DNA from: Arthrobacter sp. B3I9
GTDB lineage: Bacteria; Actinomycetota; Actinomycetes; Actinomycetales; Micrococcaceae
Assembly: GCF_030816935.1 (NCBI RefSeq)
Contig: NZ_JAUSYO010000001.1
Location: 62,001 to 126,000, forward strand
Direction of reading: 5' to 3'
DNA: 64,000 bases
How positions within the stretch are numbered: the first letter of the stretch is position 1; every line of letters starts with the position of its first letter. Of the stretch, positions 5,784-21,504 are shown piece after piece. The position numbers and the translations under genes were made by a program. Below the pieces are notes generated by a model. The model searched no databases, was not told where the DNA came from, and was given only the letters and a program-made list of their open reading frames with translations.

Positions 5784-5827
5784 GCGGCCTCCTGCTTAGA
5801 TGTGTCGGACCCACAATAACGTGGCTG

Positions 5828-6667: not shown

Positions 6668-6768
6668 TCCAAAGGCTCCTCAAGGATCTACGCTCGGCAA
6701 GACAGTCCCGGCCCCTATGCTATCGGGCCGGTACTCGGGTCAGTCCCGCCCGGCCGGCCGCCGCATTC

Positions 6769-7578
6769 TCAGTGGGCCGTGTAGCCGCCGTCGACGGGCA
6801 AGGACACTCCCGTGAGGTATGCGGCCTCATCGGACGCGAGGTAGGCAACGGCGGACGCAACGTCATCCGGGACGGCGAGCCGGCGTAGGGGTATCTTTGA
6901 GACGACGTCGGCCTCTTCGGCGGCAGGGTCCTCCTGACCGGCCAGCCACTCGTCATAAAGCGGGGTCTTGGTCATTCCAGGAGCAACCGCGTTGACCCTG
7001 ATGTTCAGCGGGGCCAGCTCAACGGCCGCCGCCCGGGTCATCGCCAGCATGGCACCTTTGCTGGCGCTGTAAATCCCCATGGTCGGCACCCCGATGGAAG
7101 CCAAACGCGACGTTATGTTGATTATGGCGCCGCCCCGGATCCGCATGTTCGCAGCGGCGGCTTGAAGCATCCGGATAGCGGCGAAAGTGTTTATTTCAAA
7201 GGTTGCCCGGATCTCGTCATCGGTCACGGTCAGAAGGTCGCCGGTGTGGTCAACCGCAGCATTGTTGACGAGGACGTCCACCCTGCCATAACGGCTGATC
7301 GTTGCCCCGATGATTTCTTCGGCGGCCCCGGCCTCCGCAATATCTGCCGGGAAAAAGCAGCAGCTTTCACCGAGCTCATCGGCTATCTGTCCGCCTCGGG
7401 TGACCGACCTGCCGGTGATGAGCACGCGAGCGCCTTCGCGTGCGAGTTTCCGGGCGATCTGTTCACCGATTCCGGAGGTGGCGCCCGTGACTACGGCTAC
7501 CTTATCCGTCAATCGCCCTCCGCCTTGCTGGTCATGCTGAAATGCCGAACCTCCCTGCCGCGGTGTTGTCCCCGTCAT
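6769..7578 (-). CDS. Short-chain dehydrogenase/reductase (SDR)
   Basis: Classical SDR of 269 residues, predicted to oxidise or reduce an alcohol/ketone with NAD(P)(H). Visible motifs are the Rossmann TGATSGIGE (about 31-39), NNAA, a conserved serine in NITSR and the catalytic YSASK. The C-terminal PVDGGYTAH is typical. GGAGG lies six bases before the ATG at 7576-7578. It is the distal gene of the minus-strand arm of the catabolic island, after the broken aldehyde dehydrogenase, so an alcohol-to-aldehyde-to-acid step may once have fed the pathway. The substrate is unknown. Confidence 0.88.
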   Translation of the reverse strand: MTGTTPRQGGSAFQHDQQGGGRLTDKVAVVTGATSGIGEQIARKLAREGARVLITGRSVTRGGQIADELGESCCFFPADIAEAGAAEEIIGATISRYGRVDVLVNNAAVDHTGDLLTVTDDEIRATFEINTFAAIRMLQAAAANMRIRGGAIINITSRLASIGVPTMGIYSASKGAMLAMTRAAAVELAPLNIRVNAVAPGMTKTPLYDEWLAGQEDPAAEEADVVSKIPLRRLAVPDDVASAVAYLASDEAAYLTGVSLPVDGGYTAH

Positions 7579-7636
7579 TCTTTACCTCCGTCACGTTGTC
7601 CGTTCTAAGTGTCCCGCCTGCCTGGCCCGGCACGTA

Positions 7637-8822
7637 CTAGGCAGTAGCGCGTCGCGCCACGTTGTAGAAGCGAATGTTCTCGTATTCTTCGAGGCCTTCC
7701 GCGCTTCCCTCACGGCCAAGGCCGGACTGCTTGACGCCGCCGAACGGCGCGGCAGCGTTTGAAGGCACCCCCTGATTTATGCCTACTATTCCGGTCGGAA
7801 GGCGATCGGCCACATTCAGCGCCCGATCGAGGTTCTCGGTGCACATAGCCGGCGAGGCCAAATTCCGACGAATTGGCCCGGACGACTACTTCGGCCTCGG
7901 AGCTGAACCTCTGGATCGCTGCAATAGGCCCGAATATTTCGGCTCTGGCGACGTCTGAATCTTCCGTCACCCGGTCCATCACGGTGGGGGCAAAGAAGTT
8001 GCCGATCGAGTCGTACCTTTGGCCGCCCGTCAGAAGCTCGGCCCCCCAGGTCCACGGCATTCCCGGTGAACGCTTGCATTTGGCACACGACCCGGTCGTC
8101 GATCAGGGCCCCAATCCGGTCTGCCTTCCAAGCCCGCTCCCTACGGGAATCTGCGTAAAGCGTTCGGCGAGAGCGGAGGCGAAATCGTCCGCGATGCCGT
8201 TCTGGACGTAGATGCGGTTGGCACCTATGCAGGACTGCCCGCCGTTGCGGAGTTTTGCGGCAAAGGTTCCATCCACCGCCCGCTGAAGGTCGGCGTCATC
8301 GAAGACTATGAGCGGGGCGTTGCCGCCGAGCTCCATCGAGGTACGGAGCACGTTCCTGGCGGCAAGCTTTAGGAGCTGGCGGCCAACGGGCGTTGACCCG
8401 GTGAATGACACCTTGCGGACCCTTGGATCTGTCAGGACCGCTTCACTGAAGGCCGCAGAATCTGATGTCGTGATCACCTGGATCAGGTCTTCCGGCACCC
8501 CGGCCTCAACGGCAAGCTGTACGGCCAGATGAGTGGTGAGGGGCGTAAGCGTCGCAGGCTTGATCACGACAGGGCATCCGGCTGCCAGTGCTGGTGCAAT
8601 TTTCCGTGTTGCCATGGCCAGAGGGAAGTTCCACGGAGTGATCAGCACCGCGAGGCCCACAGGTGACCGGCGCGTCAGAAGGCTGGCGCCTCCGTCCGGT
8701 GGTTCACGAAAGCTGCCGACAGGGCGCACGGCCTCTTCCGCATACCAGCGAACAAAGTCCGCGCCGTATTTGACCTCGCCGCGGGCCTCGGACAGAGGCC
8801 TACCCATTTCACGCGGAATCAG
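7637..8822 (-). pseudogene. Aldehyde dehydrogenase remnant (succinate-semialdehyde dehydrogenase-like), truncated and frameshifted
   Basis: NAD(P)-dependent aldehyde dehydrogenase homology is split over several frames. The N-terminal ~90 residues usual in a ~480-residue ALDH are absent: recognisable sequence starts at [13 protein letters not shown] near 8815. The Asn-containing TPWNFP, the SFTGSTPVG loop, ELGGNAP with its glutamate, and GGQSCIGANR with the catalytic cysteine are all present. Three indels follow. A base is missing in the GGGGCCC run near 8107, one base is extra in the G run at 8042-8047 (restoring the frame), and there is a third shift near 7855, after which the normal C-terminus (FGGVKQSGLGREG) resumes. 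The truncation is unlikely to be a sequencing artefact; the homopolymer indels could be. Confidence 0.85.
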
Positions 8823-8895
8823 GTGATGACAAACTGAGCCTCAGAAGTTCGGGTTCGGGCGCTGGTCGTAGACAGCTTCAAGGGCTGTCTGTGGG

Positions 8896-9624
8896 CTAGT
8901 CGGAGACCTTCGGATCGCCCTCCGACACCCGTGAGCCTCCGCTCGATTCCGTGGCGGCCGCAACGCGCCTGTCGAAGTGATCGGCGAGGAGCTCTCCGGC
9001 GTGAATGATGTGTTTGCACATTGCTGCGCGGGTTGCCTCCGCGTCTTTGGTGCGGATTCCTTGGAGGAGTTCGGTGTGATCGTCGACGGTGGCTGACGGC
9101 CACCCTTCAATTGCGGAGTAGAACCGCCTGGGAACGTACCGGGTGACGAGTTCCAGCGCCCAGGTTATTTTGCGCGACTCCGCCATGAGGTTGATTTCGC
9201 GGTGGAAGGCGTGATTTTTTTCTTCCAGCAGGTCATGGTTGTTCCGCGAGGCGGCCGCGATGAGCTCGTGGTGGAGCGCCTCCAGTTCGGCGATGTCCTC
9301 GTCAGTGGCGTTTGCGGCCGCGCGGGCAGCCAACTCCCCGCCGATCAGCGCCTGGACCTGGAACAAATCGCGGATGTCCTGGCCAGTCAGGGGCGCTACT
9401 TGGAAACCGCGGCGGGGAATGAGTTCCAGAAAGCCCTCGACCCGAAGCGCCTGCAGGGCTTCGCGGGCAGGCGTGGTGGAAATTCTCAGCGCTTCGCCGA
9501 CCGTTTCCGGCCGGACGGAGGCTCCGGGCTGTAGCTCACCGGACATGATGAGTCCTCGGATGTACGAGGAGGCTTCGTCGCTGAGCTGGGGGCGGACGCG
9601 GAGCCGCGGGCTGCGGGTGCTCAT
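8896..9624 (-). CDS. GntR-family (FadR/FCD type) transcriptional regulator
   Basis: Likely local regulator of the catabolic island. The 242-residue protein has an N-terminal winged helix (about 12-78, including VGEALRISTTPAREALQAL) and an FCD ligand-binding domain with candidate metal-binding histidines in HAFHREI, VDDHTELL and HIIHAG. An upstream in-frame ATG at 9675 exists, but GGAAGAG precedes the ATG at 9622-9624 well. An AT-rich TAATATATT box at 9640-9653 lies just upstream of the start, consistent with autoregulation. FCD regulators usually sense small organic acids. Confidence 0.9.
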   Translation of the reverse strand: MSTRSPRLRVRPQLSDEASSYIRGLIMSGELQPGASVRPETVGEALRISTTPAREALQALRVEGFLELIPRRGFQVAPLTGQDIRDLFQVQALIGGELAARAAANATDEDIAELEALHHELIAAASRNNHDLLEEKNHAFHREINLMAESRKITWALELVTRYVPRRFYSAIEGWPSATVDDHTELLQGIRTKDAEATRAAMCKHIIHAGELLADHFDRRVAAATESSGGSRVSEGDPKVSD

Positions 9625-9639
9625 GATGACGGTCTCTTC

Positions 9640-9653
9640 CCTAATATATTTTG
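9640..9653. promoter_or_regulatory. AT-rich operator-like box upstream of the GntR gene
   Basis: CCTAATATATTTT stands out in GC-rich surroundings 16-29 bases upstream of the GntR start codon. Its first eleven bases are identical to 12463-12473 in the divergent promoter region of the island. The position over the presumed transcript start suggests autorepression. Binding is inferred. Confidence 0.5.
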
Positions 9654-9725
9654 CTCTCTCTCCAAGATACGGCATCTGCTCGAGGGCAGGCGGTGGCGCC
9701 TTGGTGGACTGTGCCTTTCCTTTGA

Positions 9726-10874
9726 TCAGACGAGGTGTGTCACGCCAAGTTCAGTCAGTATGCTGGCGGTGTGCTGCCCGAGCTCGGGTACGGGATCCAT
9801 GCGGACTGTTGTTTCTCGGGAGGTCACGGGCGGAATGAGGGTGCGTAGCGGTCCGACGGGCGAGTCGACGTCCCGCCATCTGTTGCGGCCGGATAGCTGC
9901 GGGTGGGACGCAAATTCGTGCATGCCGCGCAGTTGGGCGTTGGCAATGCTTGCCCCGTCGAGCCGGGCCAGGATTTCCTCGGCTGGCAGGGAACTCAGCG
10001 CGTCATTGATCGCCTGATGCAGCGAAGGACGGTTCTCAACCCTCAGCGCATTTCCGGCAAAACGCCTGTCTTGGGCAAGCTCGGGCTGGCGCAACACGTC
10101 GGAGCAGAAGATGGCCCACTCGCGCTCGTTTTGGATTCCGAAGAAGACGGTCCCGTCTGCTGCCGGGAACGGGCCGTAAGGCGCTATGGTTGCATGCTCC
10201 GCGCCGCTTCGGGGCTGTTGGGCACCGCCGTATTCGGCGTAAAAATAGGGTTGCCCCATCCACTCCCCCAGTGCCTCCAGCATGGATACTTCCAGCACGT
10301 CTCCTCTGCCGGTGCTTGTCCGCTGCAGTAGAGAGGTCAGAATGCCGGAATAGGCATACATGCCGGCGCAGATGTCCGCGATGGATACTCCTACCTTGGC
10401 CGGAGACTCTTCGGTTCCGGTGACGCTGAGCAGGCCCGCTTCGCATTGGACCAATAGATCGTATGCCTTTTTATGCTCATAGGGGCCGCCCCGGCCATAG
10501 CCTGAGATGGACGTGTGAATGAGTCGCGGGTTCATCTGCAGCACCTCGTCTGCTCCCAGGCCCATCCGCTCTACCGCTCCCGGGGCCAGGTTTTGGACGA
10601 ACACATCCGCGGTGGAGAGCAGTTTTTTCAGAACAGCCATGCCTTCTTCAGATTTCAGATCCAGGACGAGGCTTTCTTTGCTGCGGTTCAGCCAGACAAA
10701 ATAGCTGGCCATGCCGTGCACCTTCGTGTCATAGCCGCGCGCGAAGTCGCCGGTGTCCCGCTCGATTTTGATGACGCGCGCACCCAGGTCCGCGAGTTGG
10801 CGTGTGGCGAATGGCGCGGCCACAGCCTGCTCAAGTGAAACAACCGTTATTCCAGCGAGGGGTAAACGTCCCAT
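9726..10874 (-). CDS. Family III (CaiB/BaiF) CoA-transferase, itaconate/C5-dicarboxylate CoA-transferase candidate
   Basis: Moves CoA from a donor such as succinyl-CoA to a carboxylic acid. The 382-residue length, N-terminal PLAGITVVSLEQAVAAPFAT, GARVIKIER and the aspartate of VSIADICAG (about D167, the nucleophile in this family) identify it. Its start overlaps the CitE-like stop by one base (TAATG), and the upstream genes are CitE-like and MaoC-like. That matches the Ict-Ich-Ccl itaconate set, so itaconate, mesaconate or methylsuccinate is the expected acid. The gene order supports this; substrate choice cannot be read from residues. Confidence 0.88.
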   Translation of the reverse strand: MGRLPLAGITVVSLEQAVAAPFATRQLADLGARVIKIERDTGDFARGYDTKVHGMASYFVWLNRSKESLVLDLKSEEGMAVLKKLLSTADVFVQNLAPGAVERMGLGADEVLQMNPRLIHTSISGYGRGGPYEHKKAYDLLVQCEAGLLSVTGTEESPAKVGVSIADICAGMYAYSGILTSLLQRTSTGRGDVLEVSMLEALGEWMGQPYFYAEYGGAQQPRSGAEHATIAPYGPFPAADGTVFFGIQNEREWAIFCSDVLRQPELAQDRRFAGNALRVENRPSLHQAINDALSSLPAEEILARLDGASIANAQLRGMHEFASHPQLSGRNRWRDVDSPVGPLRTLIPPVTSRETTVRMDPVPELGQHTASILTELGVTHLV

Positions 10875-11755
10875 TACAGCTCCAGACCTGCTCGTGTAAG
10901 AATTTTTTTCGCCCGTTCGATGACAGGCCTGTCAACCATTTGTCCTGCGATCTGCGCAGCGGCGCCCTCTGTGCCGACCACGGACTCAGCCCACCTGATC
11001 TCGGCTTCTCCCGGCATGAATGCCTCGGCGACCGGCGCCAACTGGGCCGGATGGATGCACAGTTTTCCGCCAAAGCCGAAGTTGCGCGCAGTCCGTGCGG
11101 ACTCCGTGACCATCGCGACGTCCTTGATCTCCACGGAAGGTGAATCCAGGGGCGCCGCTACTCCGGCAGCTCGGGACACCAAGACAAGCTGGGCCCGTGC
11201 GTGATCCAGAAAACGGTCGCCGCCATCGGCATCGATGTCCAATGCGAAGTCAATCGCCCCGAACGCAAGACGGGTCACTGCGTCAATGGAGGCAATATCG
11301 AGGGCGTGGACCACGCCGAGCGCTGATTCTATGAGCGGAACGAAGGCCAACTCGTTGGGCAACGTCCGGGCCAGTGCTTGCAGCAGGGCCACGTCTTCGG
11401 CTTTCGGAACCACAACACCCAGCAGGCCATGGCCGGGCAGGGCGGTGAGGCTGAGCAGGGCGTCGATCTCTTCGTCGTGAGTGGCGGACCCGGCCGGATT
11501 CGTCCGGACCAGCGCGCGGACTGCGGGGGCCCCGTGGTCCCCGTTCGGAGTCACGGCCGCCACCGCCGCGGCCAGCGCTTTGGACTTCGAGTCTTCTGCG
11601 ACGGCATCTTCCAGATCGATAATGACGACGTCCGCGCCTGATGCTGCCGCCTTTGAGAACCGTTCCGGCCGGTTTCCGGGGACAAACAATGCCGTCACTG
11701 CTGACGCCGTTGTCAGTGCACCGTTGAGTCCGGCCACACTTGCGGGCCCGATCAC
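10874..11755 (-). CDS. HpcH/HpaI aldolase, CitE-like lyase ((S)-citramalyl-CoA lyase candidate)
   Basis: CitE-like TIM-barrel lyase of 293 residues, expected to cleave a beta-hydroxyacyl-CoA such as citramalyl-CoA to acetyl-CoA and pyruvate with Mg2+. Signature segments are LFVPGNRPERF, IDLEDAV (about 46-52), VPLIESALGV with the metal-binding glutamate, FGAIDFALD and GGKLCIHPAQ. The GTG start at 11753-11755 overlaps the MaoC stop (GTGA), and its own stop overlaps the CoA-transferase start, so the three genes form a tightly coupled unit. Malyl-CoA or another 3-hydroxyacyl-CoA remains an alternative substrate. Confidence 0.88.
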   Translation of the reverse strand: MIGPASVAGLNGALTTASAVTALFVPGNRPERFSKAAASGADVVIIDLEDAVAEDSKSKALAAAVAAVTPNGDHGAPAVRALVRTNPAGSATHDEEIDALLSLTALPGHGLLGVVVPKAEDVALLQALARTLPNELAFVPLIESALGVVHALDIASIDAVTRLAFGAIDFALDIDADGGDRFLDHARAQLVLVSRAAGVAAPLDSPSVEIKDVAMVTESARTARNFGFGGKLCIHPAQLAPVAEAFMPGEAEIRWAESVVGTEGAAAQIAGQMVDRPVIERAKKILTRAGLEL

Positions 11756-12351
11756 TGGAACGGTTCTGCGGAAGGAAGGCTGGACTCGTCCGGGCGGGCG
11801 GACTCGACGCCGGGCAGGTGGCCGTGGCGGTACACCATGAAGGTACGGCGATAGCTGATCACGATCGTGCCGTCCTGGTTGAAGCCTTCGGTAGCGACTG
11901 TCACCAGCCCAAGGCTGGGGCGGGACTTTGATTCGCGCACGGCGAGAACCTTTGAACGCGAATAGATCGTGTCGCCTTCATAGACGGGGTTCGGCATCCG
12001 GACCTCGTCCCAGCCCATGTTCGCGAAGACGTTCATGGACAGGTCGATCGTCGACTGGCCGGTGACCAGCGCCAGCGTAAAGGTCGAATTAACCAGTGGC
12101 AGACCGAATTCGGTGCCCTTGGCAAAGTTGCTGTCCACGTGGGTCTTGGCCACGTTCTGTGTCATCAGCGTGAAGGTCTGGTTATCGGCCTGAGTGACGG
12201 TCTTTCCGAACGGGTGGTAATAGATGTCCCCCACCGAAAAATCCTCGAATAGTCTCCCTGTCCAACCCGGGACCACGCGCGTAGCCGGGCCGGCCCCGCG
12301 GAACCCCTCCCCTTGAACTGCACGGTCTATGATCGGTTTCTCCGCGGACAT
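11752..12351 (-). CDS. MaoC-like hotdog hydratase (itaconyl-CoA/mesaconyl-CoA hydratase candidate)
   Basis: Hotdog-fold enoyl-CoA hydratase of 199 residues. GRLFEDFSVGD near residue 32 begins the domain, and TQADNQTFTLMTQNVAKTHVD carries the Asp...His hydratase signature. LVNSTFTLALVTGQS is the conserved central helix and NPVYEGDTIYSRS the usual beta-strand motif. An AGGAG lies just before the ATG at 12349-12351. It is first in the minus-strand unit, behind a near-consensus promoter (12408-12436). In Ich-type enzymes the family adds water to itaconyl-CoA; that role is inferred from neighbours. Confidence 0.85.
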   Translation of the reverse strand: MSAEKPIIDRAVQGEGFRGAGPATRVVPGWTGRLFEDFSVGDIYYHPFGKTVTQADNQTFTLMTQNVAKTHVDSNFAKGTEFGLPLVNSTFTLALVTGQSTIDLSMNVFANMGWDEVRMPNPVYEGDTIYSRSKVLAVRESKSRPSLGLVTVATEGFNQDGTIVISYRRTFMVYRHGHLPGVESARPDESSLPSAEPFQ

Positions 12352-12385
12352 CAGGACTCCTATGTCTGTTACATGCTCTGCCAGA

Positions 12386-12401
12386 AAAAATATTTTATAT
12401 T
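12386..12401. promoter_or_regulatory. AT-rich operator-like box (type B) downstream of the MaoC promoter
   Basis: The 16-mer AAAAATATTTTATATT recurs exactly at 17748-17763. Its core at 12389-12401 is a 5-bp inverted repeat with a 3-base spacer (AATAT-TTT-ATATT as read on the plus strand). It lies just downstream of the -10 of the minus-strand promoter, a position from which a bound repressor would block initiation. The GntR regulator of the island is the best candidate; LacI is an alternative. Confidence 0.55.
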
Positions 12402-12407
12402 GTCAGC

Positions 12408-12436
12408 AGAATAGGTCTCTCCGGCCAAGCTGTCAA
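12408..12436 (-). promoter_or_regulatory. Sigma-70-type promoter for the MaoC-CitE-CoA-transferase unit
   Basis: Minus strand: TTGACA (12436-12431), a 17-base spacer and TATTCT (12413-12408). This is close to the consensus, and the type B box lies immediately downstream over the transcript start. Confidence 0.75.
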
Positions 12437-12453
12437 CGCCCGTCGAGAAACGC

Positions 12454-12482
12454 TTGAAGGCACCTAATATATTATGTATTGT
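12454..12482 (+). promoter_or_regulatory. Promoter of the acyl-CoA dehydrogenase unit with palindrome in the spacer
   Basis: Plus strand: TTGAAG (12454-12459), a 17-base spacer and TATTGT (12477-12482), about 45 bases before the acyl-CoA dehydrogenase ATG. The spacer contains the perfect 10-bp palindrome TAATATATTA (12465-12474), shared in part with the box before the GntR gene. A repressor there would exclude RNA polymerase. Confidence 0.6.
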
Positions 12483-12526
12483 CATGGTATCGCTAATAGC
12501 CAAGACGACCCGCCTCAGGAGTAAAG

Positions 12527-13690
12527 ATGCCCACTCATGATCCACGCCTTGCAGCACTCCGCGAGCAGACGCGCCGTCTGTGCGCTGCCTTCCCGGACGA
12601 GTACTGGCGCGAGACAGACCGGAACCGCCGGTACCCGCAGGAGTTCGTTGACACCCTGACGGAATCCGGTCTCCTCGGCGCCCTCATCCCCACCGAGTTC
12701 GGCGGACTCGGTCTTGGCCTGACCGAGGCCAGCGTCATCATGGAGGAAATCAACAAATCCGGCGGCCACTCGGCTGCCTGCCACGCGCAGATGTACACCA
12801 TGGGCGCTCTGCTTCGCCACGGCAACGAGACCCAGAAACGGGCCTACCTGCCACAGATCGCGGCCGGCAAACTACGGCTGCAGGCCTTCTCGATCACTGA
12901 AGACAAAGCCGGGTCGGACACCACCAGTATCGAGACCGCAGCCGTGCGCGACGGTGACGACTTCATCATCACCGGCCACAAGAGCTGGACCAGCCGGATT
13001 GAGGAATCCGACCTGGCCTTCGTGTTGGCCCGCACCTCTGTGAAAAGCGCAAATAAGACCGAGGGCATCACCCTATTCCTGGTGGACCTGCGCCAGGTCC
13101 GCGCGGAACAGCCCGACACGCTCAAGGTGACCAAGGTCCGCACCATGTTCAACTACGCCACCAACCAAGTGCACTATCAGGGAATGCGGGTGCCGGCCTC
13201 GGCCGTCATCGGCGAGGTGGGTCAAGGCTTCCGCTACGTCATTGACGGATGGAACGCCGAACGCATCCTGCTCGCGTCCGAAGCCATCGGCGACGGTTAC
13301 TGGTTCACCCAGCGGGCCACGGACTACGCCAACAGCCGTGAAGTGTTCGGCCGGAAGATCGGCGCCAACCAGGGCGTACAGTTTCCCATCACCGATGCCT
13401 ACATGAGAGTACGGGCGGCGGACTTGATGCGGTACGAGGCGGCCCGGCTCTTCGACGCCCATGAGCCCTGCGGAGCGGAAGCCAACATGGTCAAGCATCT
13501 GGCATCCGAGGCAAGCTGGGCAGCCGCCAACGCCTGCCTGGATACCCACGGAGGGTACGGTTTTGTCGACGAATATGATGTTGAGCGTAAATTCCGGGAA
13601 ACCCGCATGTTCCAGGTGGCCCCGGTCAACAACAACCTGATCAAGAGTTTCATCGCCACAAAGGTCCTTGGACTGCCCCGGTCATACTGA
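12527..13690 (+). CDS. Acyl-CoA dehydrogenase family protein
   Basis: FAD enzyme expected to introduce an alpha,beta double bond into a short acyl-CoA. The 387-residue protein has the N-terminal helical domain, the FAD-contacting FSITEDKAGSDTTSIET segment, FIITGHKSWTSR, and the C-terminal domain with GVQFPITDAY and LDTHGGYGF. AGGAG precedes the ATG by six bases. It is divergent from the MaoC-CitE-CoA-transferase unit across a shared regulatory region. The Pseudomonas itaconate locus contains a similar dehydrogenase; here it could oxidise methylsuccinyl-CoA to a C5-enoyl-CoA. Substrate is inferred. Confidence 0.88.
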   Translation: MPTHDPRLAALREQTRRLCAAFPDEYWRETDRNRRYPQEFVDTLTESGLLGALIPTEFGGLGLGLTEASVIMEEINKSGGHSAACHAQMYTMGALLRHGNETQKRAYLPQIAAGKLRLQAFSITEDKAGSDTTSIETAAVRDGDDFIITGHKSWTSRIEESDLAFVLARTSVKSANKTEGITLFLVDLRQVRAEQPDTLKVTKVRTMFNYATNQVHYQGMRVPASAVIGEVGQGFRYVIDGWNAERILLASEAIGDGYWFTQRATDYANSREVFGRKIGANQGVQFPITDAYMRVRAADLMRYEAARLFDAHEPCGAEANMVKHLASEASWAAANACLDTHGGYGFVDEYDVERKFRETRMFQVAPVNNNLIKSFIATKVLGLPRSY

Positions 13691-13794
13691 GCTTTGCCTG
13701 TCGGGCACTCCCTGCGGGGGATCCCCGAGAGGGTCTTCCGGTACCCGGCCGCAACCGGAACGCGGAAGGCAGACGCCGACGAAAGGACATGAGC

Positions 13795-14112
13795 ATGTGT
13801 TCAGGCTGCGGGACCCCGCCGTCCAATATTGACTGGTACAGCGCAGGGGTGCCGGATTCCCCTGGCGGCCGGATCCAGGCCAGAACGCGGCTGGCCCGGG
13901 CCGCGAATGCCGTTCTGACCGGGTCCGGGCTGAGTGTCACTTTCTACCAAGGTGCCTCAAGCCTGTCGATGCGGAACACGGGCGGGGCCACCGAGCCGGT
14001 GTACACCTTGCCTGACATCTGGACTGCTGCCGGCAAGCTCTCCGATATTGACTTGGATCCGCTGGCTCCGCGCTTCACCGGCCGGCCTACTGTGAGCCCG
14101 GCCGATGATTGA
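13795..14112 (+). CDS. Small CxxC protein next to a COG0523 GTPase
   Basis: Unrecognised 105-residue protein beginning MCSGCG, a CxxC that could bind metal or be redox-active. It is otherwise hydrophilic, with a DIDLDPLAPRFTGRP tail. GAAAGGA fits the ATG at 13795 better than the in-frame ATG at 13789. The stop codon overlaps the start of the COG0523 GTPase by eight bases, so the two are translationally coupled and probably functionally linked, perhaps in metal delivery. It follows the acyl-CoA dehydrogenase by about 100 bases and is likely on the same transcript. Confidence 0.6.
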   Translation: MCSGCGTPPSNIDWYSAGVPDSPGGRIQARTRLARAANAVLTGSGLSVTFYQGASSLSMRNTGGATEPVYTLPDIWTAAGKLSDIDLDPLAPRFTGRPTVSPADD

Positions 14113-15127: not shown

Positions 15128-16494
15128 CTGACGGCCGTAACCTCCGGGCGTCTGGCTGCCTGGAGGTCCATGGACCGCGTGGCTGCGGCGAGCTGGGCGG
15201 CGCGTTCGACTCCCAGCAGTCCGGCGATTTTTTCTTCGATGTCCTGCCAGCCGGGCCGGTCTCCTGCGGAGCCCCGGAACGCAGCCTCGGACCGGGAGAT
15301 AACGTCCCCGCCCTTGAGGCGGACGTGGACTTCGGCCTGCCAGGAGGCCGGGAAGGCGGCTTCAAGGGCCTCGCTGGTGTAGCAGCGGACTTTTTCCATC
15401 CATGGGAGCAGCTCGGCGGCAATGTGCGGTGCGTGGGCGAATTGGTCCACTGTTGCCTTGCCGGTGGTCAATGCCAGGGCGGCTCCGAACGGCATGTTGA
15501 ACTGGGCATCAACCGTTGAGCTGACCTCAAGCTTCCGTTCAGCAGGTTCCGAGACAAGCGCCGCGCCGGCCTTGATCACGCCCACATCGATGGACTGGAT
15601 GTCCTGGACCGTCAGGTCAGGGAAGTCGCTGTGGATGCCACGCAACAGGTCGATGTTGCCATGCATGTACCGGCAACACGGGTAAAACTTGATGCTCGTT
15701 TGCAATGCGCCTCGACCGAAGGTGAGCGCGAGTTCGCGTCCAGGTTGCTTGCCTTGGCCGTACTGGACCAGGAAGCCGTCGCGGCCCTCCAATGACCGTT
15801 CCGGTCCCCTGAAACCGGCGGCGGCCAATCGTGCGGCCCGGATTCCTGTGGACGCGGCCTGACCGGCATTGAGTCGCTTTGTCCAGGATCCGTCGGACAG
15901 AAACTCCAGACTTCCTGAGGCCATGTTCGCCGCCAGGCCCAGCGCGTGCCTCGTCTCCTCCACGCCCAGGCCGAGCATGCGAGCCACGGCCGCGGCCGAG
16001 CCGAGAACACCGGCGACTCCAGTCGGATGGAACCCTCTGCCGTAGCTTTCGCGCGCGCCGAGCAACACACCAACGGAACACATCACGTCATAGCCGACAA
16101 TGGCGGCCGCGACGAGATCTTCCGCCGGCAGTTCACGTTCGTCAGCCACCGCCAAAAGCGCCGGAAATATCACCACAGCCGGATGCAGCGACGCCTCTTC
16201 GAAGGTGTCATCGAGTTCGAGCCCGTGGGCCAGAATTCCATTGACCAGAGCCGCGTCCTCAGGAGAGGTCCAGCTGTCGGTGCCGAGGAGGGCAGCGCTG
16301 TGCTGCGGCGATCGTTGGTTGGACGCGGTAACCGCAGCCCGCGCGGCGCCAGCGGAGTCAAGGCGCGCCCCACCGAGACTGACACCCAGAAAGTCGAACA
16401 GGAGCAGCCGCATCCAGTCGTTGAGCTCAGGCGTCGCGTTGTGATTGTCAGTGACGTGTTCGGCCAGTGTCTGCGCGAGTGTCTTGTAAGTCAT
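15124..16494 (-). CDS. MmgE/PrpD family protein (dehydratase/isomerase/decarboxylase superfamily)
   Basis: Member of the family containing 2-methylcitrate dehydratase PrpD and cis-aconitate decarboxylase. The ATG at 16492-16494 is preceded by AAAGGG; an 18-residue upstream extension is rejected. The 456 residues show the helical MmgE/PrpD domain with LLLFDFLGVSLGG, GILAHGLELDDTFEEASLHP (active-site region), GRGFHPTGVAG, and the mid-protein YPCCRYMHG. A homologue accompanies the itaconate genes in Pseudomonas. Possible roles are formation or isomerisation of an unsaturated C5/C6 acid. It is probably co-directional with, and downstream of, the LacI gene. Confidence 0.85.
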   Translation of the reverse strand: MTYKTLAQTLAEHVTDNHNATPELNDWMRLLLFDFLGVSLGGARLDSAGAARAAVTASNQRSPQHSAALLGTDSWTSPEDAALVNGILAHGLELDDTFEEASLHPAVVIFPALLAVADERELPAEDLVAAAIVGYDVMCSVGVLLGARESYGRGFHPTGVAGVLGSAAAVARMLGLGVEETRHALGLAANMASGSLEFLSDGSWTKRLNAGQAASTGIRAARLAAAGFRGPERSLEGRDGFLVQYGQGKQPGRELALTFGRGALQTSIKFYPCCRYMHGNIDLLRGIHSDFPDLTVQDIQSIDVGVIKAGAALVSEPAERKLEVSSTVDAQFNMPFGAALALTTGKATVDQFAHAPHIAAELLPWMEKVRCYTSEALEAAFPASWQAEVHVRLKGGDVISRSEAAFRGSAGDRPGWQDIEEKIAGLLGVERAAQLAAATRSMDLQAARRPEVTAVS

Positions 16495-16565
16495 GAATAT
16501 CCCTTTCTTGGAAGTGCCCGAGGAGAACTTCGTTGTCCGCAATGGCACTGAATAGTTGTCCGCGC

Positions 16566-17570
16566 CTAGGGCACAGTGGAGGCCCGCGCCACCAGGTGCG
16601 GTGTGAGGAGTAGGGATTCCGCTTCGCCACCCGCCATCAGGTCGAAGAGCAGAGTCATCGCTTCCTGGCCCATCTGAAACATGGGTGAACTGACTGAGGT
16701 CAGCGGAACCGGAAGGTAGGAGGACAATGGCACATCGTTATAGCCCACTACCGCGACATCGCGGCCAGGGACTTTGCCAAACTCACGGACAGCCCCCATC
16801 GCCCCGATGGCCGCGAAATCATTGATGGCGAATATCGCCGTCAGGTCCGGGTTGCCGGCCAAGAGAGCGGAGCCGGCCTCATAGCCGCCCACAGCGTCCG
16901 TCCCGGAATTGATGATCCTGCCCTCATCAAGGCCCATGCCCGCGGACCGGAACTGCGATACGAAGCCGTGTGTGCGCTCGGCACACGTACTCACATAGCT
17001 CGGACCTGCAATGATTCCCACATTCTCATGTCCCAGCTCCAGGAGATGAGATGCCGCCAGTCGACCCCCCAGAACGTCGTCGGTCGTTACTGACGGATGC
17101 CCCCGCAGCCGTCTATTCACGAGGACGTAGGGGACTCCACGCTTGCTCAGAATTCCAACCAGTTCGTCGCCGTCCAGTCGTGCATCGCCCAGAACCACAC
17201 CCTCCACGCGCCGGAGCAGAAGATCGTTGAGCTTCTCCCGCCGCCGCAGCGGGTCATCGTTGGTGTTGGACACGAAAGTGTTGTAACCACGTTCAGTAGC
17301 CCGGGAGTCGATTCCTTCGTAGATAGTGGCCAGAACATAGTCGGATACCCGGGGAACCAGCACGCCGAGCACACCGCTTCGCCCTGTGCGCAACGCCGCT
17401 GCCGCCGGGTCGGGTTCATAGCCCATCTCGTCAGCGAGGAGCCGTATCCGGTCTACGGTCTCTGCCCCAATTCTTGGGTCGGAAGACAGGGCACGCGACG
17501 CGGTGGAGACGTGAACGCCGGCCCGCTTGGCCACGTCCGTCAGGGTGACGACTCTTGAAACTCGCGGCAT
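16566..17570 (-). CDS. LacI-family transcriptional regulator
   Basis: DNA-binding regulator of 334 residues. The N-terminal helix-turn-helix is VTLTDVAKRAGVHVSTASRA (about 8-27), followed by the hinge (DEMGYEPDPAAAALRTGRSG) and a periplasmic-binding-protein-like sensor domain ending SVSSPMFQMGQEA. AGGGAG precedes the ATG at 17568-17570. It is divergent from the imidase-amidase-permease unit and upstream of the PrpD gene, so it probably controls one or both. A GTGA-N6-TCAC repeat between the divergent starts (17777-17790) could be its operator. Confidence 0.92.
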   Translation of the reverse strand: MPRVSRVVTLTDVAKRAGVHVSTASRALSSDPRIGAETVDRIRLLADEMGYEPDPAAAALRTGRSGVLGVLVPRVSDYVLATIYEGIDSRATERGYNTFVSNTNDDPLRRREKLNDLLLRRVEGVVLGDARLDGDELVGILSKRGVPYVLVNRRLRGHPSVTTDDVLGGRLAASHLLELGHENVGIIAGPSYVSTCAERTHGFVSQFRSAGMGLDEGRIINSGTDAVGGYEAGSALLAGNPDLTAIFAINDFAAIGAMGAVREFGKVPGRDVAVVGYNDVPLSSYLPVPLTSVSSPMFQMGQEAMTLLFDLMAGGEAESLLLTPHLVARASTVP

Positions 17571-17747
17571 ATGACTCCCTCAGCTACGCAGGTGTGGGTC
17601 ACGGAACGATGGGAGAACCGGCGCTCCAGGACCGGAGCGCCGGCACTGCTCACCCGATGCAAAGGATTTCGCAGGCGCCAATACATTATTTCATGCAAGA
17701 GCGCCGTTACGCCAGTGTAGTCGTTTTGTTACCAGCACATTTCACAC

Positions 17748-17763
17748 AAAAATATTTTATATT
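17748..17763. promoter_or_regulatory. AT-rich operator-like box (type B), exact copy of 12386-12401
   Basis: AAAAATATTTTATATT is identical over 16 bases to the box in the MaoC promoter region 5.4 kb away. Here it lies immediately upstream of the -35 of the imidase promoter. In GC-rich DNA this repetition is unlikely by chance and suggests one regulator, probably the GntR protein, acts on both transcription units. An UP-element role is the alternative. Confidence 0.55.
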
Positions 17764-17769
17764 CATCCC

Positions 17770-17799
17770 TTGACGCGTGAGACTTTTCACACCTACGCT
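17770..17799 (+). promoter_or_regulatory. Promoter of the imidase-amidase-permease unit with inverted repeat in the spacer
   Basis: TTGACG (17770-17775), an 18-base spacer and TACGCT (17794-17799), about 110 bases before the imidase-like ATG. The spacer contains GTGA-N6-TCAC (17777-17790), an inverted repeat suited to a dimeric repressor such as the adjacent LacI protein. The remainder of the 339-base LacI/imidase intergenic region contains no credible gene. Confidence 0.65.
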
Positions 17800-17909
17800 C
17801 AGTGCAAACGGATGCGCAATCCGGTCCTCGCTCGCATGACGGTGTCCACTCCGGCTCCGTCCAAGCGGCGTCGACGCTCTTCCGAAATCACTCACCAAAG
17901 GAGAAACCC

Positions 17910-18827
17910 ATGGCAAAGGACATCAAGGTCTGCATCGGCGTGGACATCGACGCAGTGGCCGGCTGGATCGGCTCTTACGGCGGGGCGGACTCCCCTGCAG
18001 ATATCCAAAGGGGGATGTTCGCGGGCGAAGTAGGCGTGCCGCGGCTGCTGAAGCTCTTCAAGAAATTCGGCATCCAGACAACCTTCTTCTCCCCCGGCCA
18101 CTCAATCGAGACGTTTCCTCACCGGATCGAACAGATCGTCGAGGCCGGCCACGAACTCGGCGCCCACGGCTACACGCACGAAAACCCGATTGCCATGACG
18201 CCGGAACAAGAAGAAGACGTCCTGAACAAGTCCATCGAGCTGATCGAGAAGTTTTCGGGACAACGGCCCCGCGGATACATCGCCCCCTGGTGCGAACTGT
18301 CGCCCGTGACCACGGATCTCCTCCTCAAAAACGGGTTCAAATACGACCACAGCCAGGCGTTCCACGACTTCCAGCCGTTCTACGCACGCACCGGAGACAC
18401 CTGGACGAACATCGACCTGTCCAAGCCCGCTGAACACTGGATGAAGCCACTGGTCCGAGGAAACGAAATCGACCTCGTCGAAATCAACTTCAACTGGTAC
18501 ATCGATGACCTGCCCCCGATGATGTTCATCAAGGCGAGCCCGAACAGCCACGGCTTCGTAAACCCCCGGGACATCGAGCAGATGTGGCAGGACCAGTTCG
18601 ACTGGGTGTACCGCGAGCACGACGACTACGCGATCTTCCCGATCACTATCCACCCGGATGTCTCCGGCCGCCCGCAGGTCCTGCTGATGCTCGAACGCCT
18701 CCTCGAGTACATCTCCGGCCATGACGGCGTCTCGTTCGAAACCTTCGAAACCGTCGCAGCGGACTTCAGGAAGCGTTTCCCGTTCGACTCCAACAGCCGC
18801 TACCCGTTCGACCGCGACCTTCCCTAA
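17910..18827 (+). CDS. Polysaccharide deacetylase (NodB)-fold hydrolase, imidase-like
   Basis: Metal-dependent C-N hydrolase of 305 residues. A longer frame starts at 17802, but AAAGGAG fits the ATG at 17910. The NodB metal site is visible as VDID (D12/D14) and HGYTH (H86/H90). [10 protein letters not shown] and the [21 protein letters not shown] and DQFDWVYRE segments distinguish this subgroup from chitin deacetylases. It has no signal peptide, so the substrate is a small intracellular molecule. From family knowledge the closest characterised type is the imidase of Pseudomonas putida YZ-26, which opens cyclic imides; PuuE-type allantoinase is an alternative. It is first in a unit with an amidase and a permease. 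Confidence 0.78.
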
Positions 18828-18897
18828 CGTCCGTTTAGGAGGCAGCCCCCGTCCGGAGCCGGGCACCGTCCCTCCGCTGAACTCAGCAAAGTGCCCA

Positions 18898-18941
18898 GGG
18901 AACGTGGTCAGCAGCGCTTGCGGCTTGCTGGCCACGTTCCC
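18898..18941 (+). terminator. Strong hairpin between imidase-like and asparaginase genes
   Basis: GGGAACGTGGTCAGCA pairs with TGCTGGCCACGTTCCC across a 12-base loop, giving about 16 bp with one G-T pair, then CTTTC. It sits within the 156-base gap. It may end or attenuate the first transcript, lowering expression of the amidase and permease relative to the imidase. Confidence 0.75.
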
Positions 18942-18983
18942 CTTTCAAACACGTCGTTTTTTGCCAGCTAAGGACTCACCACA

Positions 18984-19994
18984 GTGTCGAATCAAGTTCC
19001 CCGCGTCGCCGTTATCACGTTGGGCGGGACCATCGCTTCAGTCCCGGACTCCAAAGGAAACGACGCCGTCCCCAAGATGACGGCCGAGGCGTTATTCGAC
19101 GCGGTGCCCCAGGCCAGGAAACTGGCGACCCTGACGTCCCACAGCTTTCGCCAGTACCCATCCGGAGATCTGTCCCTGGAAGACATCCTGGAACTCGCCG
19201 GTCTCATCGAGGATATGGCTCAGGACCAGGACACCGATGGCGTGGTCATCACCCAAGGCACGGACACCCTGGAGGAAACCTCGTTCCTTCTGGATCTGCT
19301 CCTGACGACAGACCTTCCCGTCGTCTTCACCGGCGCTATGCGCAATCCCGGACTCCCGGGGGCCGACGGACCGGCGAATCTGCTGGGTGCTGTGCAGGTT
19401 GCCACCAACCACCAGTCCCGGGGGCTAGGGCCTGTGGTGGTTTTCAACGATGAAATTCACCTGCCCCGATTTGTGCGGAAAATGCACAGCGCCAGCACCG
19501 CGGCCTTCAGCTCCCCGAACGCCGGACCGATCGGCTGGATCAACGAAGGCCGGGTCAGGGTCCCCCTCAGGCCCGCGGCAAGAACACGACCAGTGCCGCG
19601 GGAACTGGTTGCTTCCTCGCGACTGCCCCGGGTTGCCCTGCTGAAACTCGGCTTGGATGTCGAAGATTCGCTAATTCGACTGGTGTTGCAGGACGGCTTC
19701 GATGGACTCGTCATTGAGACATTCGGTGGCGGCCACGTACCCCGCCAACTGATGACCTCTCTGGCCAAGGCTGCCGACGAGCTCCCGGTCGTGTTCGCCT
19801 CCCGCACGGGGGCCGGGGAACTCTACGAATCAACCTACGGATTTCCGGGATCAGAACGAGACCTCCTTAGTCAAGGGCTGCTGAGTTCCGGAATATTAGA
19901 CGGACTGAAATCACGCCTGCTGCTCACCATGCTCCTGGCCGCCGGAGCGACCCGAGACGAAATCACCCAACGATTTCAGCAGTACCTGTCCTAG
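18984..19994 (+). CDS. Asparaginase family protein (candidate half-amidase)
   Basis: Bacterial type I/II asparaginase-fold amidohydrolase of 336 residues, cytoplasmic because there is no signal peptide. The first catalytic threonine lies in ITLGGTIAS (T16) and the second in VVITQGTDTLEET (T93, D94). VFTGAMRNPGLPGADGP and VIETFGGGHVP are conserved core segments. The start is GTG at 18984, with AAGGA nine bases upstream. Asparagine hydrolysis is the default function. In this context, beside an imidase-like ring opener, hydrolysis of a succinamate-type half-amide to a dicarboxylate and ammonia is a reasonable alternative. Confidence 0.85.
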   Translation: MSNQVPRVAVITLGGTIASVPDSKGNDAVPKMTAEALFDAVPQARKLATLTSHSFRQYPSGDLSLEDILELAGLIEDMAQDQDTDGVVITQGTDTLEETSFLLDLLLTTDLPVVFTGAMRNPGLPGADGPANLLGAVQVATNHQSRGLGPVVVFNDEIHLPRFVRKMHSASTAAFSSPNAGPIGWINEGRVRVPLRPAARTRPVPRELVASSRLPRVALLKLGLDVEDSLIRLVLQDGFDGLVIETFGGGHVPRQLMTSLAKAADELPVVFASRTGAGELYESTYGFPGSERDLLSQGLLSSGILDGLKSRLLLTMLLAAGATRDEITQRFQQYLS

Positions 19995-20077
19995 AAATTC
20001 GGAACGCATTGAAGAGCACTTCCAGACGCCGCGGACAGAGTCCGTACGGCCCCATCCATAACAAGGGAATCGAGATT

Positions 20078-21445
20078 ATGACCGTTTCACAACCTACGAC
20101 GTGGGAAGCACCCGTGGTGACCCCCCGCGACGTCAAGATCGCCACCTGGATCTGCTTCTTCGCCTGGACCTTCGCAGTCTATGACTTCGTCTTGTTCGGT
20201 AATCTTCTGCCCGTGATTGCCGCCGAATTCGGCTGGGATGCAAGCACTGCCACAGGCCTCAACACCTGGGTAACCGTCGGTACCGCCCTAGTCGCATTCG
20301 GGGTCGGCCCCATCGTCGACAAAATTGGCCGCCGCAAAGGCATCATCGTTGCCGTGATGGGAGCAGCGATCGCATCACTGCTCACGGTTGCCGTCGGATG
20401 GCTCCTCGGAGTTGTCGCCGGCCTCGGCTTCATATTGCTGATCATCGTCCGCTCCGTCGCCGGCCTGGGCTACGCGGAACAGTCCATTAACGCCACGTAC
20501 CTGGGCGAAATGTTCGCCCATGCGTACTCGGACCCGGCAAAGGCCCGTCGGCGCGGCTTCACCTACTCGCTTGTCCAGTCGGGATGGCCCATCGGCTCTG
20601 TCCTCGCCGCCGCCTCCATTGCCATCATCCTTCCGATCGGTGGATGGGAATGGGCCTTCGTCATCGCTGCGTTCCCCGCCATCTTCATTTTCATTGCGGG
20701 CCGGTACCTGAAAGAGAGCCCCCAGTTCACTGCTCGCCACAAGGCCGAGCGCCTCCTGCGCGAAGGAAAGACCACCGAGGCACATGCTCTCGCCGACAGC
20801 GTGGGAGTCGATCTCACCGATGCAGCGACACCTCTTGCAGCAGCTTTCAAGGGTGAATCCCTCCGATCCACCCTGGTTATCGGATTCTCATTTCTCCTGA
20901 GCTGGTTAGGCGTCCTTGCCTTCGTCATTCTGGGCACGTCCGTACTCACAGCGGCCAGCGGCAAGGGGATCACGTTCGACAATGCCCTGGGCATCCTCAT
21001 CGTCTCCAACCTCACCGCATTCCTCGGATACCTCGCCTTCGGGTGGTTGGGGGATCGCCTCGGACGGCGCAACGCCATCTCCATCGGATGGATTCTTTCC
21101 GGCCTTTCCTTCGGCGGCATGCTGCTAGCCCCCAACGGAAACTTTCCCCTCATCATCACCCTTTACAGTGCCGGACTGATCTTCCTGCTTGGGCCCTTCG
21201 CGGCGTTGCTGTTTTTCAACAGCGAAAGCTTCCCTGTCCACACCCGAGCCACCGGCGGCTCAATCATTAACGCAGCAGGCCAACTCGGAGCGATCATCGG
21301 CGGTGTACTGATCACTGCATCCCTGGCAGCGGGCATGTCCTGGACAGCTGCCTCATTCTGGTGGGGCGTTCTTCCGATCTTCGTTGCGGGAATCCTCATC
21401 CTGGCCGCCCGGAACGTGGACCCGCGCAAGGCACGCACGGACTAA
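20078..21445 (+). CDS. MFS transporter (metabolite:H+ symporter type)
   Basis: Twelve-helix major facilitator of 455 residues. The ATG at 20078 is preceded by AAGGGA; a 23-residue upstream extension is not needed. The first helix (WICFFAWTFAVYDFVLFGNLLP), the loop 2-3 signature GPIVDKIGRRKG and its repeat GWLGDRLGRRNA are clear, as is a central hydrophilic loop (HKAERLLREGKTTEAHAL). This subgroup carries organic acids such as sialate, shikimate or dicarboxylates. As the last gene of the imidase-amidase unit it probably imports the pathway substrate. A hairpin follows at 21505-21553. Confidence 0.88.
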   Translation: MTVSQPTTWEAPVVTPRDVKIATWICFFAWTFAVYDFVLFGNLLPVIAAEFGWDASTATGLNTWVTVGTALVAFGVGPIVDKIGRRKGIIVAVMGAAIASLLTVAVGWLLGVVAGLGFILLIIVRSVAGLGYAEQSINATYLGEMFAHAYSDPAKARRRGFTYSLVQSGWPIGSVLAAASIAIILPIGGWEWAFVIAAFPAIFIFIAGRYLKESPQFTARHKAERLLREGKTTEAHALADSVGVDLTDAATPLAAAFKGESLRSTLVIGFSFLLSWLGVLAFVILGTSVLTAASGKGITFDNALGILIVSNLTAFLGYLAFGWLGDRLGRRNAISIGWILSGLSFGGMLLAPNGNFPLIITLYSAGLIFLLGPFAALLFFNSESFPVHTRATGGSIINAAGQLGAIIGGVLITASLAAGMSWTAASFWWGVLPIFVAGILILAARNVDPRKARTD

Positions 21446-21504
21446 TAGCCAAGCCGGCCAGACCCAGCAACAACGTGAAGAAAACGCCGCAAGGACGGAC
21501 GCAG

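What the first reader, a model, noticed from the sequence alone, without database searches (positions are those of the whole stretch)
6769..21445. Catabolic island joining an imidase/amidase front end to the itaconate CoA route
Seen: family III CoA-transferase, CitE-like lyase and MaoC hydratase with overlapping genes, plus acyl-CoA dehydrogenase and MmgE/PrpD. This is the gene set of the Pseudomonas itaconate locus (Ict, Ich, Ccl). Unlike that locus it also carries an imidase-like NodB-fold hydrolase, an asparaginase-fold amidase and an MFS permease on a third transcript, with shared operator-like boxes. A coherent route can be drawn: cyclic imide (for example 2-methylsuccinimide or a methylmaleimide-type ring fragment) to half-amide to C5 dicarboxylate to acyl-CoA to enoyl-CoA to citramalyl-CoA to acetyl-CoA plus pyruvate. 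Each enzyme class has a place. I know of no described pathway with this combination.
Basis: partly seen in the sequence, partly recalled or inferred. Interest (0 to 1): 0.78.

Follow-up and report, generated by a model that had tools for sequence, protein, structure and literature searches.

The report
Imide-breakdown genes wired into methylsuccinate pathway
A soil-type bacterium appears to have merged two separately travelling gene sets, one that opens nitrogen rings called cyclic imides and one that burns branched five-carbon acids, under shared control boxes, which predicts a breakdown route that still has to be tested at the bench.

Summary
The genes are as described. Module B (CoA-transferase, CitE-like lyase, MaoC, acyl-CoA dehydrogenase, MmgE/PrpD) has the five gene classes of the published itaconate/methylsuccinate cluster. 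Module A (NodB-fold imidase-family enzyme, asparaginase-fold amidase, MFS, LacI) also includes a CobW-type GTPase and a small MCxxCG protein. Elsewhere they occur apart: none of 7 other B loci carries A, and none of 80 NodB loci has CoA-transferase, MaoC, CitE or PrpD within 4 kb. Here they interleave in a ~16.6 kb island. The best evidence for coupling is regulatory: a matrix trained on 7 foreign B promoters finds five sites of score 11 or more in 64 kb, two in MaoC|ACAD, one before GntR, two in LacI|NodB between LacI-type operators. Closest module-A relatives lack them. A 16-mer is shared by both divergent promoters; its 15-base core (up to 2 mismatches) occurs twice in the genome. Caveats: the LacI|NodB sites are weaker than every training box, and one may be an UP element. 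The substrate, for example 2-methylsuccinimide, is inferred. NCBIfam cut-offs for the itaconate enzymes are not met. The combined arrangement was seen in one genome.

The parts
5310..21930 (.). genomic island between the FUSC-like gene (4016-5284) and radA (21961-23334); GC 62.4% against 66.6% and 67.5% in the flanks
6769..7578 (-). SDR-family oxidoreductase, role open
7710..8807 (-). broken aldehyde dehydrogenase (pieces in two frames; N- and C-terminal profile parts missing)
8896..9675 (-). GntR/FCD regulator, 67-74% identical in the 7 other module B loci
9640..9655 (+). predicted GntR box (score 17.5), just upstream of the internal ATG that is the likely GntR start
9726..10874 (-). family III CoA-transferase (Ict-like role)
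10874..11755 (-). CitE-like lyase (citramalyl-CoA-lyase-like role)
11752..12351 (-). MaoC hydratase, nearest to mesaconyl/itaconyl-CoA hydratase models (Ich-like role)
12386..12401 (+). predicted box AAAAATATTTTATATT (score 14.2), identical to the copy at 17748
12463..12478 (+). predicted GntR box (score 26.2), between the apparent -35 and -10 of ACAD (read by eye)
12527..13690 (+). acyl-CoA dehydrogenase; usual catalytic Glu absent, Glu kept in the NAERI motif (isovaleryl-CoA-dehydrogenase-like position, recalled)
13795..14112 (+). small MCxxCG protein (orf107 family), no Pfam or NCBIfam match
14105..15127 (+). CobW/COG0523-type GTPase; last ~35 residues do not align with relatives
15124..16548 (-). 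MmgE/PrpD protein (methylsuccinate-isomerase-like role); 17 bp after LacI on the same strand
16566..17570 (-). LacI-family regulator of module A
17658..17673 (+). LacI-type operator-like site; similar sites in 3 of 4 A-clade relatives
17677..17692 (+). predicted GntR box (score 13.6)
17748..17763 (+). predicted GntR box (score 14.2) or UP element; ends 6 bases before the TTGACG -35 at 17770
17803..17818 (+). LacI-type operator-like site; similar sites in 3 of 4 A-clade relatives
17907..18827 (+). NodB-fold hydrolase of the cyclic-imidase/HpPgdA family
18984..19994 (+). asparaginase-fold amidase (half-amidase role inferred)
20009..21445 (+). MFS permease, nearest to the aromatic acid/H+ symport subfamily (cut-off not met)

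Best explanation
A horizontally acquired island in which an imide-opening module (A) has been brought under the GntR regulator of a branched C5-dicarboxylate module (B), giving one nested regulon. Inferred route: the MFS permease imports a 2-substituted succinimide-type ring (2-methylsuccinimide is the simplest fit). The NodB-fold enzyme, possibly supplied with metal by CobW and the MCxxCG protein, opens the ring to a half-amide. The asparaginase-fold enzyme removes ammonia to give a 2-alkylsuccinate. PrpD interconverts its enantiomers, the CoA-transferase activates it, the dehydrogenase makes the mesaconyl-C4-CoA-type enoyl-CoA, MaoC hydrates it to citramalyl-CoA, and the CitE-like lyase releases acetyl-CoA and pyruvate. 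Shown by sequence: gene classes, interleaving, island borders, box distribution. Inferred: operator function, co-transcription, every enzyme activity, the substrate.
For: Module B recurs as a unit with the same gene types and ACAD|MaoC divergence: 6 loci in 5 of the 294 other family genomes plus one locus from another family (L156). In each of the 7, two AATATATT sites (at most 1 mismatch) 88-100 bp apart lie in MaoC|ACAD; leave-one-out scoring recovers both in 6 of 7 and one in L137. A matrix from those 14 sites, window excluded, gives 5 sites of score 11 or more in the window, overlaps collapsed: 12463, 9640, 12386, 17748, 17677. Background: 2 sites of 13.6 or more in 999,778 bases of 51 GC-matched loci, and one site of 11 or more (12.3) in 91,302 bases of the own genome outside the island. 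The 16-mer is found twice in the window; its 15-base core with up to 2 mismatches twice in the whole genome. Four A-clade relatives (L005, L006, L007, L155) show no box of 11.5 or more in the promoter region of their module A; three of them have LacI-type operator-like sites there. PrpD is 17 bp behind LacI, and orf107-CobW lies behind ACAD. In L136 a box (19.8) lies before a same-strand run of five genes that ends in PrpD. The five classes equal the methylsuccinate cluster of PMC12290011. L156 and Thermus L147 add fumarase genes of the class I type (class recalled from the family names); that paper's Fig. 6 legend names class I fumarase as catalysing the mesaconate hydratase reaction. PrpD keeps His108, Glu111, His122, His174, Lys224, Lys287 with nearly the spacing reported for PA0881. 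The NodB protein belongs with PDB 3qbu, which PMC9304392 relates to cyclic imidases.
Against: NCBIfam cut-offs are not met for RipB/Ich (176 of 340 bits), RipC/Ccl (159 of 375) and mesaconate CoA-transferase (185 of 700). The combined A+B arrangement was seen in this genome only. The 17748 box fits the UP-element consensus (recalled) and sits right before a -35 element. The boxes at 12386, 17748 and 17677 (14.2, 14.2, 13.6) score below all 14 training boxes (15.9-30.1) and within the range of the best site in 40 random 64-kb sequences (mean 10.1, largest 16.7); box spacing (77 and 71 bp) differs from 88-100 bp. The training sites were picked after looking at the sequences, and two of the 7 loci are from one genome. 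L007 has a hit of 18.5 between Asn and MFS, and the A' locus L144 has one of 11.8 between LacI and Asn. The pattern YAATATATTHTGTA with 2 mismatches gives 4 hits in the genome and its reversed control also 4. A lone A module needs no B: 79 of 295 family genomes, own included, have a NodB match at E<=1e-100. The ALDH is broken and the CobW C-terminus is aberrant. No expression or enzyme data.
Confidence: 0.46

Rival explanations
1. Two independent catabolic modules share one island. Module A feeds an ordinary acid (succinate, glutarate, malate) from a simple imide into central metabolism; module B degrades free methylsuccinate/itaconate. The shared 16-mer is an UP element or chance AT-rich promoter sequence.
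For: A and B each occur alone elsewhere. The AAAAATATTTT core matches the UP-element consensus (recalled) and lies directly upstream of the -35 at 17770. The LacI|NodB sites are weaker than every training box.
Against: The second box at 17677 is not at an UP-element position; the 15-base core with up to 2 mismatches occurs only twice in 4.12 Mb; A and B genes alternate along the same strands; no site elsewhere in the window scores 11 or more.
Confidence: 0.29
2. Coupled regulon, but for a different substituent: a larger 2-substituted succinimide, maleimide or glutarimide (for example tetrapyrrole-derived maleimides), with acetyl-CoA plus another 2-oxo acid as products.
For: Module B enzymes are diverged from the characterised ones. 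PMC12290011 notes that the MmgE/PrpD site could take larger C3-modified substrates (passage seen). Relative L005 has an FMN oxidoreductase-family gene right after NodB-Asn-MFS, which could reduce a maleimide.
Against: No direct evidence for any substituent; fumarase genes at two other B loci point to C5 acids.
Confidence: 0.17
3. The NodB-fold protein is a cell-envelope polysaccharide deacetylase, as its automatic annotation says, unrelated to imides.
For: Pfam Polysacc_deac_1; PDB 3qbu is named a peptidoglycan deacetylase.
Against: In the 29 other family loci fetched with NodB (L095-L123, about 3.9 kb each) an asparaginase relative lies beside it in 29 and the permease relative in 25. PMC9304392 describes 3qbu as of unknown specificity and related to cyclic imidases, and its own close homologue HxnM as an imide hydrolase (passages seen).
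Confidence: 0.05

Closest known systems
Itaconate/methylsuccinate cluster of Pseudomonas/Cupriavidus (ich, mcd, mmgE, ict, ccl; PA0878-PA0883)
   Same: Same five enzyme classes; a coherent CoA-dependent route to acetyl-CoA plus pyruvate (PMC12290011, PMC9875883).
   Different: NCBIfam equivalog cut-offs not met. The proteobacterial comparison cluster L149 (Azospirillum, itself uncharacterised) has an acyl-CoA dehydrogenase only 32% identical with the usual catalytic Glu. Here the regulator is GntR/FCD and an imide module is attached.
Cyclic imide hydrolase family (P. putida YZ-26 imidase, A. nidulans HxnM, H. pylori HP0310)
   Same: Same NodB-fold subfamily as HP0310; imidase followed by an amidase, as HxnM-HxnN in fungal nicotinate breakdown (PMC9304392, passages).
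   Different: The amidase here is asparaginase-fold; the predicted product enters a CoA route rather than 2-hydroxyglutarate; CobW and MCxxCG genes lie in the cluster.
LacI | Asn-NodB-MFS-SDR-SDR operon of Micrococcaceae (module A', also elsewhere in this genome, L142)
   Same: Same enzyme trio (L142: NodB 67%, Asn 33%, MFS 41%) and a LacI regulator.
   Different: A' has two SDRs and no CobW match in L142-L144. Of these three, L142 and L143 have no box of 11.5 or more; L144 has one of 11.8 between LacI and Asn.
COG0523/CobW metallochaperones
   Same: G3E GTPase with an invariant GCxCC motif.
   Different: Paired with an MCxxCG protein and an imidase-family enzyme; that client does not appear in the passages found in PMC2770081.

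Membership tests
Itaconate/methylsuccinate degradation cluster | all five gene classes (ict, ich, ccl, mcd, mmgE) within one locus | tested here: met
Itaconate/methylsuccinate degradation cluster | hydratase above the NCBIfam RipB/Ich cut-off | tested here: not met
   175.7 of 340 bits, (the search in 14 control genomes matched 6, none over the cut-off)
Itaconate/methylsuccinate degradation cluster | lyase above the NCBIfam RipC/Ccl cut-off | tested here: not met
   158.9 of 375 bits
Itaconate/methylsuccinate degradation cluster | MmgE/PrpD residues that hold a 1,4-dicarboxylate (PA0881 His88, Glu91, His102, His152, Lys202, Lys266) | tested here: met
   His108, Glu111, His122, His174, Lys224, Lys287. 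Shared by the whole MmgE/PrpD family, so not isomerase-specific; Tyr169 lies 5 before His174, whereas PA0881 has Tyr148 4 before His152
Itaconate/methylsuccinate degradation cluster | enzyme activity on methylsuccinate/itaconate and their CoA esters | not testable with these tools
   needs assays
Cyclic imide hydrolase (NodB fold) | close sequence relation to HP0310 (3qbu), the published structural neighbour of imidases | tested here: met
   E 2.8e-136 over 291 residues; the link to imidases is from PMC9304392 passages
Cyclic imide hydrolase (NodB fold) | imide hydrolysis | not testable with these tools
   needs assay
Half-amidase (asparaginase fold) | substrate pocket without alpha-amino recognition | tested here: inconclusive
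   alignments do not settle the residues
Shared GntR regulon | sites resembling the boxes of foreign B loci present at both divergent promoter regions of the island | tested here: met
   the LacI|NodB sites are weaker than all training boxes
Shared GntR regulon | GntR binds these sites | not testable with these tools
   needs EMSA or footprint
COG0523 metallochaperone | G3E GTPase fold with GCxCC motif | tested here: met
   Pfam cobW 121 bits; invariant Gly70, Cys71, Cys73, Cys74
Frataxin/CyaY-like fold (MCxxCG protein) | fold match | tested here: inconclusive

The most novel reading that the evidence does not exclude
A previously undescribed catabolic regulon converts 2-alkyl cyclic imides to acetyl-CoA plus a 2-oxo acid, and arose by regulatory capture: operators of a branched-dicarboxylate GntR regulator appeared in the promoter of a transferable imidase module, between its own LacI operators. 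Its imidase is matured by a CobW GTPase with an unrecognised MCxxCG partner that accompanies this NodB family in several phyla (MCxxCG protein in 71 of 80 loci, CobW within 4 kb in 61 of 80).
Probability: 0.3. Interest if true: 0.75.

Novelty: new variant of a known kind. Interest (0 to 1): 0.52.

Why it matters
No described route from branched cyclic imides into central metabolism turned up in the listings of the searches made. The discussion of PMC12290011 calls the origin of methylsuccinate unclear until recently; imides would be another source. The locus gives a directly testable case of two mobile catabolic modules fused by operator gain. The widespread NodB-MCxxCG-CobW association offers a client hypothesis for a COG0523 subgroup.

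Tried and rejected

Rejected. Conserved A+B linkage: not found. Membership in the RipB/RipC equivalogs: cut-offs not met. PrpD as an original part of module A: relative L005 has CobW directly next to LacI without PrpD. Box duplication by copying a longer promoter piece: flanks outside the shared stretch differ.

Dropped or partial rows. Of the 8 other family genomes matching CitE at E<=1e-50, 3 (G036, G215, G243; 42-47% identity) show no B genes around CitE and were not counted as B. The matrix used 14 boxes, the best two per locus by the AATATATT core with at most 1 mismatch within a fixed stretch; L139 and L140 come from one genome, so they are not independent. Leave-one-out also found sites outside the B promoters: L136 at 12438 (19.8), L139 at 6939 (11.9), L140 at 11991 (12.3). 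The real-DNA background used 51 of 77 loci (L008-L084), those with GC 60-70%. One search kept 80 of 154 encoding loci. The order samples (396) overlap the family sample (295); the PrpD of G255 (L136, 59%) is not in the order list, so that sample misses genomes.

Full report
WHAT IS THERE. The window is G000:C1:62001-126000 of a 4.12 Mb genome. The aldehyde dehydrogenase at 7710-8807 is broken. The last ~35 residues of CobW do not align with relatives, consistent with a late frameshift.

ISLAND. In 7 of 11 other same-genus loci the FUSC-like gene (window 4016-5284) lies directly beside radA (window 21961-23334) (12 loci were fetched in a search of 41 genomes, one of them the window's own; the flanks read were 1.5 kb). 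Here about 16.6 kb separate them. GC of 5310-21930 is 62.4%, against 66.6% and 67.5% in the flanks.

TWO MODULES THAT TRAVEL APART. Module B: in the family search 9 of 295 genomes, own included, match CitE at E<=1e-50. Around CitE, 5 of the 8 others carry ACAD diverging from MaoC-CitE-CoAT-GntR, in 6 loci. A PrpD search in 396 order genomes gave one other hit at E<=1e-90, G505, whose locus L156 has all five classes (with CitE on the ACAD side), a second CoA-transferase and a fumarase. Named plasmids show similar company: Rhodococcus rhodochrous GD02 has CitE-PrpD-CoAT-MaoC-ACAD, Thermus thermophilus has CitE, GntR, fumarase, ACAD, CoAT, MaoC. None of the 7 other B loci carries a match to NodB, Asn, MFS, CobW or LacI of the window in the stretch read (14-19.5 kb). 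Module A: NodB of 78% identity or more was seen in three named genomes (L005, L006, L007) and in G458 among 396 order genomes, although 37 of the 120 proteins listed reach it, mostly without a named organism. A more distant A' operon (Asn-NodB-MFS) is common: 79 of 295 family genomes, own included, have a NodB match at E<=1e-100, and this genome has its own copy (L142). In 80 NodB loci no CoA-transferase, MaoC, CitE or PrpD lies within 4 kb of NodB; one has an acyl-CoA dehydrogenase.

INTERLEAVING. In relative L005 the order is orf107-CobW, then LacI (opposite strand), then NodB-Asn-MFS. In the window PrpD sits between CobW and LacI, 17 bp behind LacI on its strand, and orf107-CobW follows ACAD. 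Both the ACAD and LacI transcripts thus seem to carry genes of both modules; co-transcription was not tested.

SHARED BOXES. The 16-mer AAAAATATTTTATATT occurs exactly twice in the window with up to 3 mismatches allowed, 0 expected from shuffles: in MaoC|ACAD and in LacI|NodB. Its 15-base core with up to 2 mismatches occurs twice in the genome. Each of the 7 foreign B loci has two AATATATT sites (at most 1 mismatch) 88-100 bp apart in MaoC|ACAD; leave-one-out scoring at 11 or more recovers both in 6 of 7 loci and one in L137. A matrix from those 14 boxes, window excluded, scores 26.2 at 12463, 17.5 at 9640 (before GntR), 14.2 at 12386 and 17748, 13.6 at 17677; no other place in 64 kb reaches 11. 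The last three lie below all 14 training boxes (15.9-30.1). In 40 random 64-kb sequences the mean best score was 10.1 and the largest 16.7, so they are not decisive by score alone; their weight comes from position. In 999,778 real bases of 51 GC-matched loci only 2 sites reach 13.6. A second pattern, YAATATATTHTGTA with 2 mismatches, hits the genome four times: window positions 12465 (exact), 9642, the overlapping reverse match at 12461, and one place elsewhere; its reversed control also gives 4 hits, so by count it shows no enrichment. The four A-clade relatives have no site of 11.5 or more in the promoter region of module A; L007 has an 18.5 hit between Asn and MFS. In A' loci, L142 and L143 have none and L144 has one of 11.8 between LacI and Asn. 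LacI-type operator-like sites at 17658 and 17803 have counterparts in L005, L006 and L155, not in L007. In L136 a box of 19.8 lies before a same-strand run of five genes that ends in ALDH and PrpD. Caveat: the 17748 copy also fits the UP-element consensus (recalled) and ends 6 bases before a -35 element.

ENZYMES. The five B classes equal the cluster shown to degrade methylsuccinate (PMC12290011: abstract, passages, sections 12, 13 and 14 part 1 read; PMC9875883: passages seen). That paper places its methylsuccinate isomerase almost only in Pseudomonadota (96.2%), so the actinobacterial PrpD here may well be a different lineage. NCBIfam cut-offs for the named itaconate enzymes are not met, so I do not file them as RipB or RipC. 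PrpD keeps the six dicarboxylate-binding residues. The acyl-CoA dehydrogenase lacks the usual catalytic Glu and keeps a Glu in a motif that I recall as the isovaleryl-CoA dehydrogenase position; 10 of 11 homologues compared share this, L149 does not. Methylsuccinyl-C4-CoA is the carboxy analogue of isovaleryl-CoA (own knowledge), so the position is consistent, not proof. NodB matches PDB 3qbu at E 2.8e-136; PMC9304392 (passages seen) reports that 3qbu is of unknown specificity and related to cyclic imidases, and proposes that its homologue HxnM opens a cyclic imide.

ACCESSORY PAIR. A motif scan found one MCxxCG protein in each of 71 of 80 NodB loci, mostly right behind NodB, and CobW matches lie within 4 kb in 61 of 80. 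The four proteins scanned have no Pfam match above its cut-off, and the three scanned against NCBIfam have none; the model (pLDDT 80.1) has no convincing PDB match. A role in metal delivery to the imidase is inference; no CobW match was seen in the A' loci L142-L144.

VERDICT. A functional coupling of an imide front end with a methylsuccinate-type route is the best reading (0.46), the specific substrate is open, and the arrangement is known from one genome.

Noticed in passing
L005-L084 (71 loci listed); window 13795-14112: A small MCxxCG protein family without Pfam or NCBIfam model accompanies this NodB family and a CobW GTPase in several phyla.
   Followed up: partly
L005:13589-14701: An FMN oxidoreductase-family gene (PF00724) directly follows NodB-Asn-MFS in the closest module-A relative; it could reduce a maleimide ring.
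   Followed up: no
L142 (G000:C1:247000-266000): A second Asn-NodB-MFS operon with LacI and two SDRs exists in the same genome.
   Followed up: partly
window 7710-8807: Broken aldehyde dehydrogenase inside the island.
   Followed up: partly
window 15020-15127: The C-terminal ~35 residues of CobW do not align with relatives, next to the place where PrpD sits in addition to the L005 order.
   Followed up: partly
L126 and L131 (Rubrobacter indicoceani plasmid NZ_CP031116.1): NodB-MCxxCG-CobW with asparaginase, and MaoC-PrpD-ACAD, lie on the same 170-kb plasmid, about 48 kb apart.
   Followed up: no
L130 (Klebsiella pneumoniae plasmid NZ_CP147633.1): An amidase-NodB-MFS-SDR-SDR-MCxxCG-CobW run of genes sits on a plasmid, so the imide module also occurs in enterobacteria.
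   Followed up: no
G000:C1:3141774-3142262 (L125, L146): The genome has a second RipB-like MaoC gene (146.6 bits) with a CitE relative beside it, outside the window.
   Followed up: no
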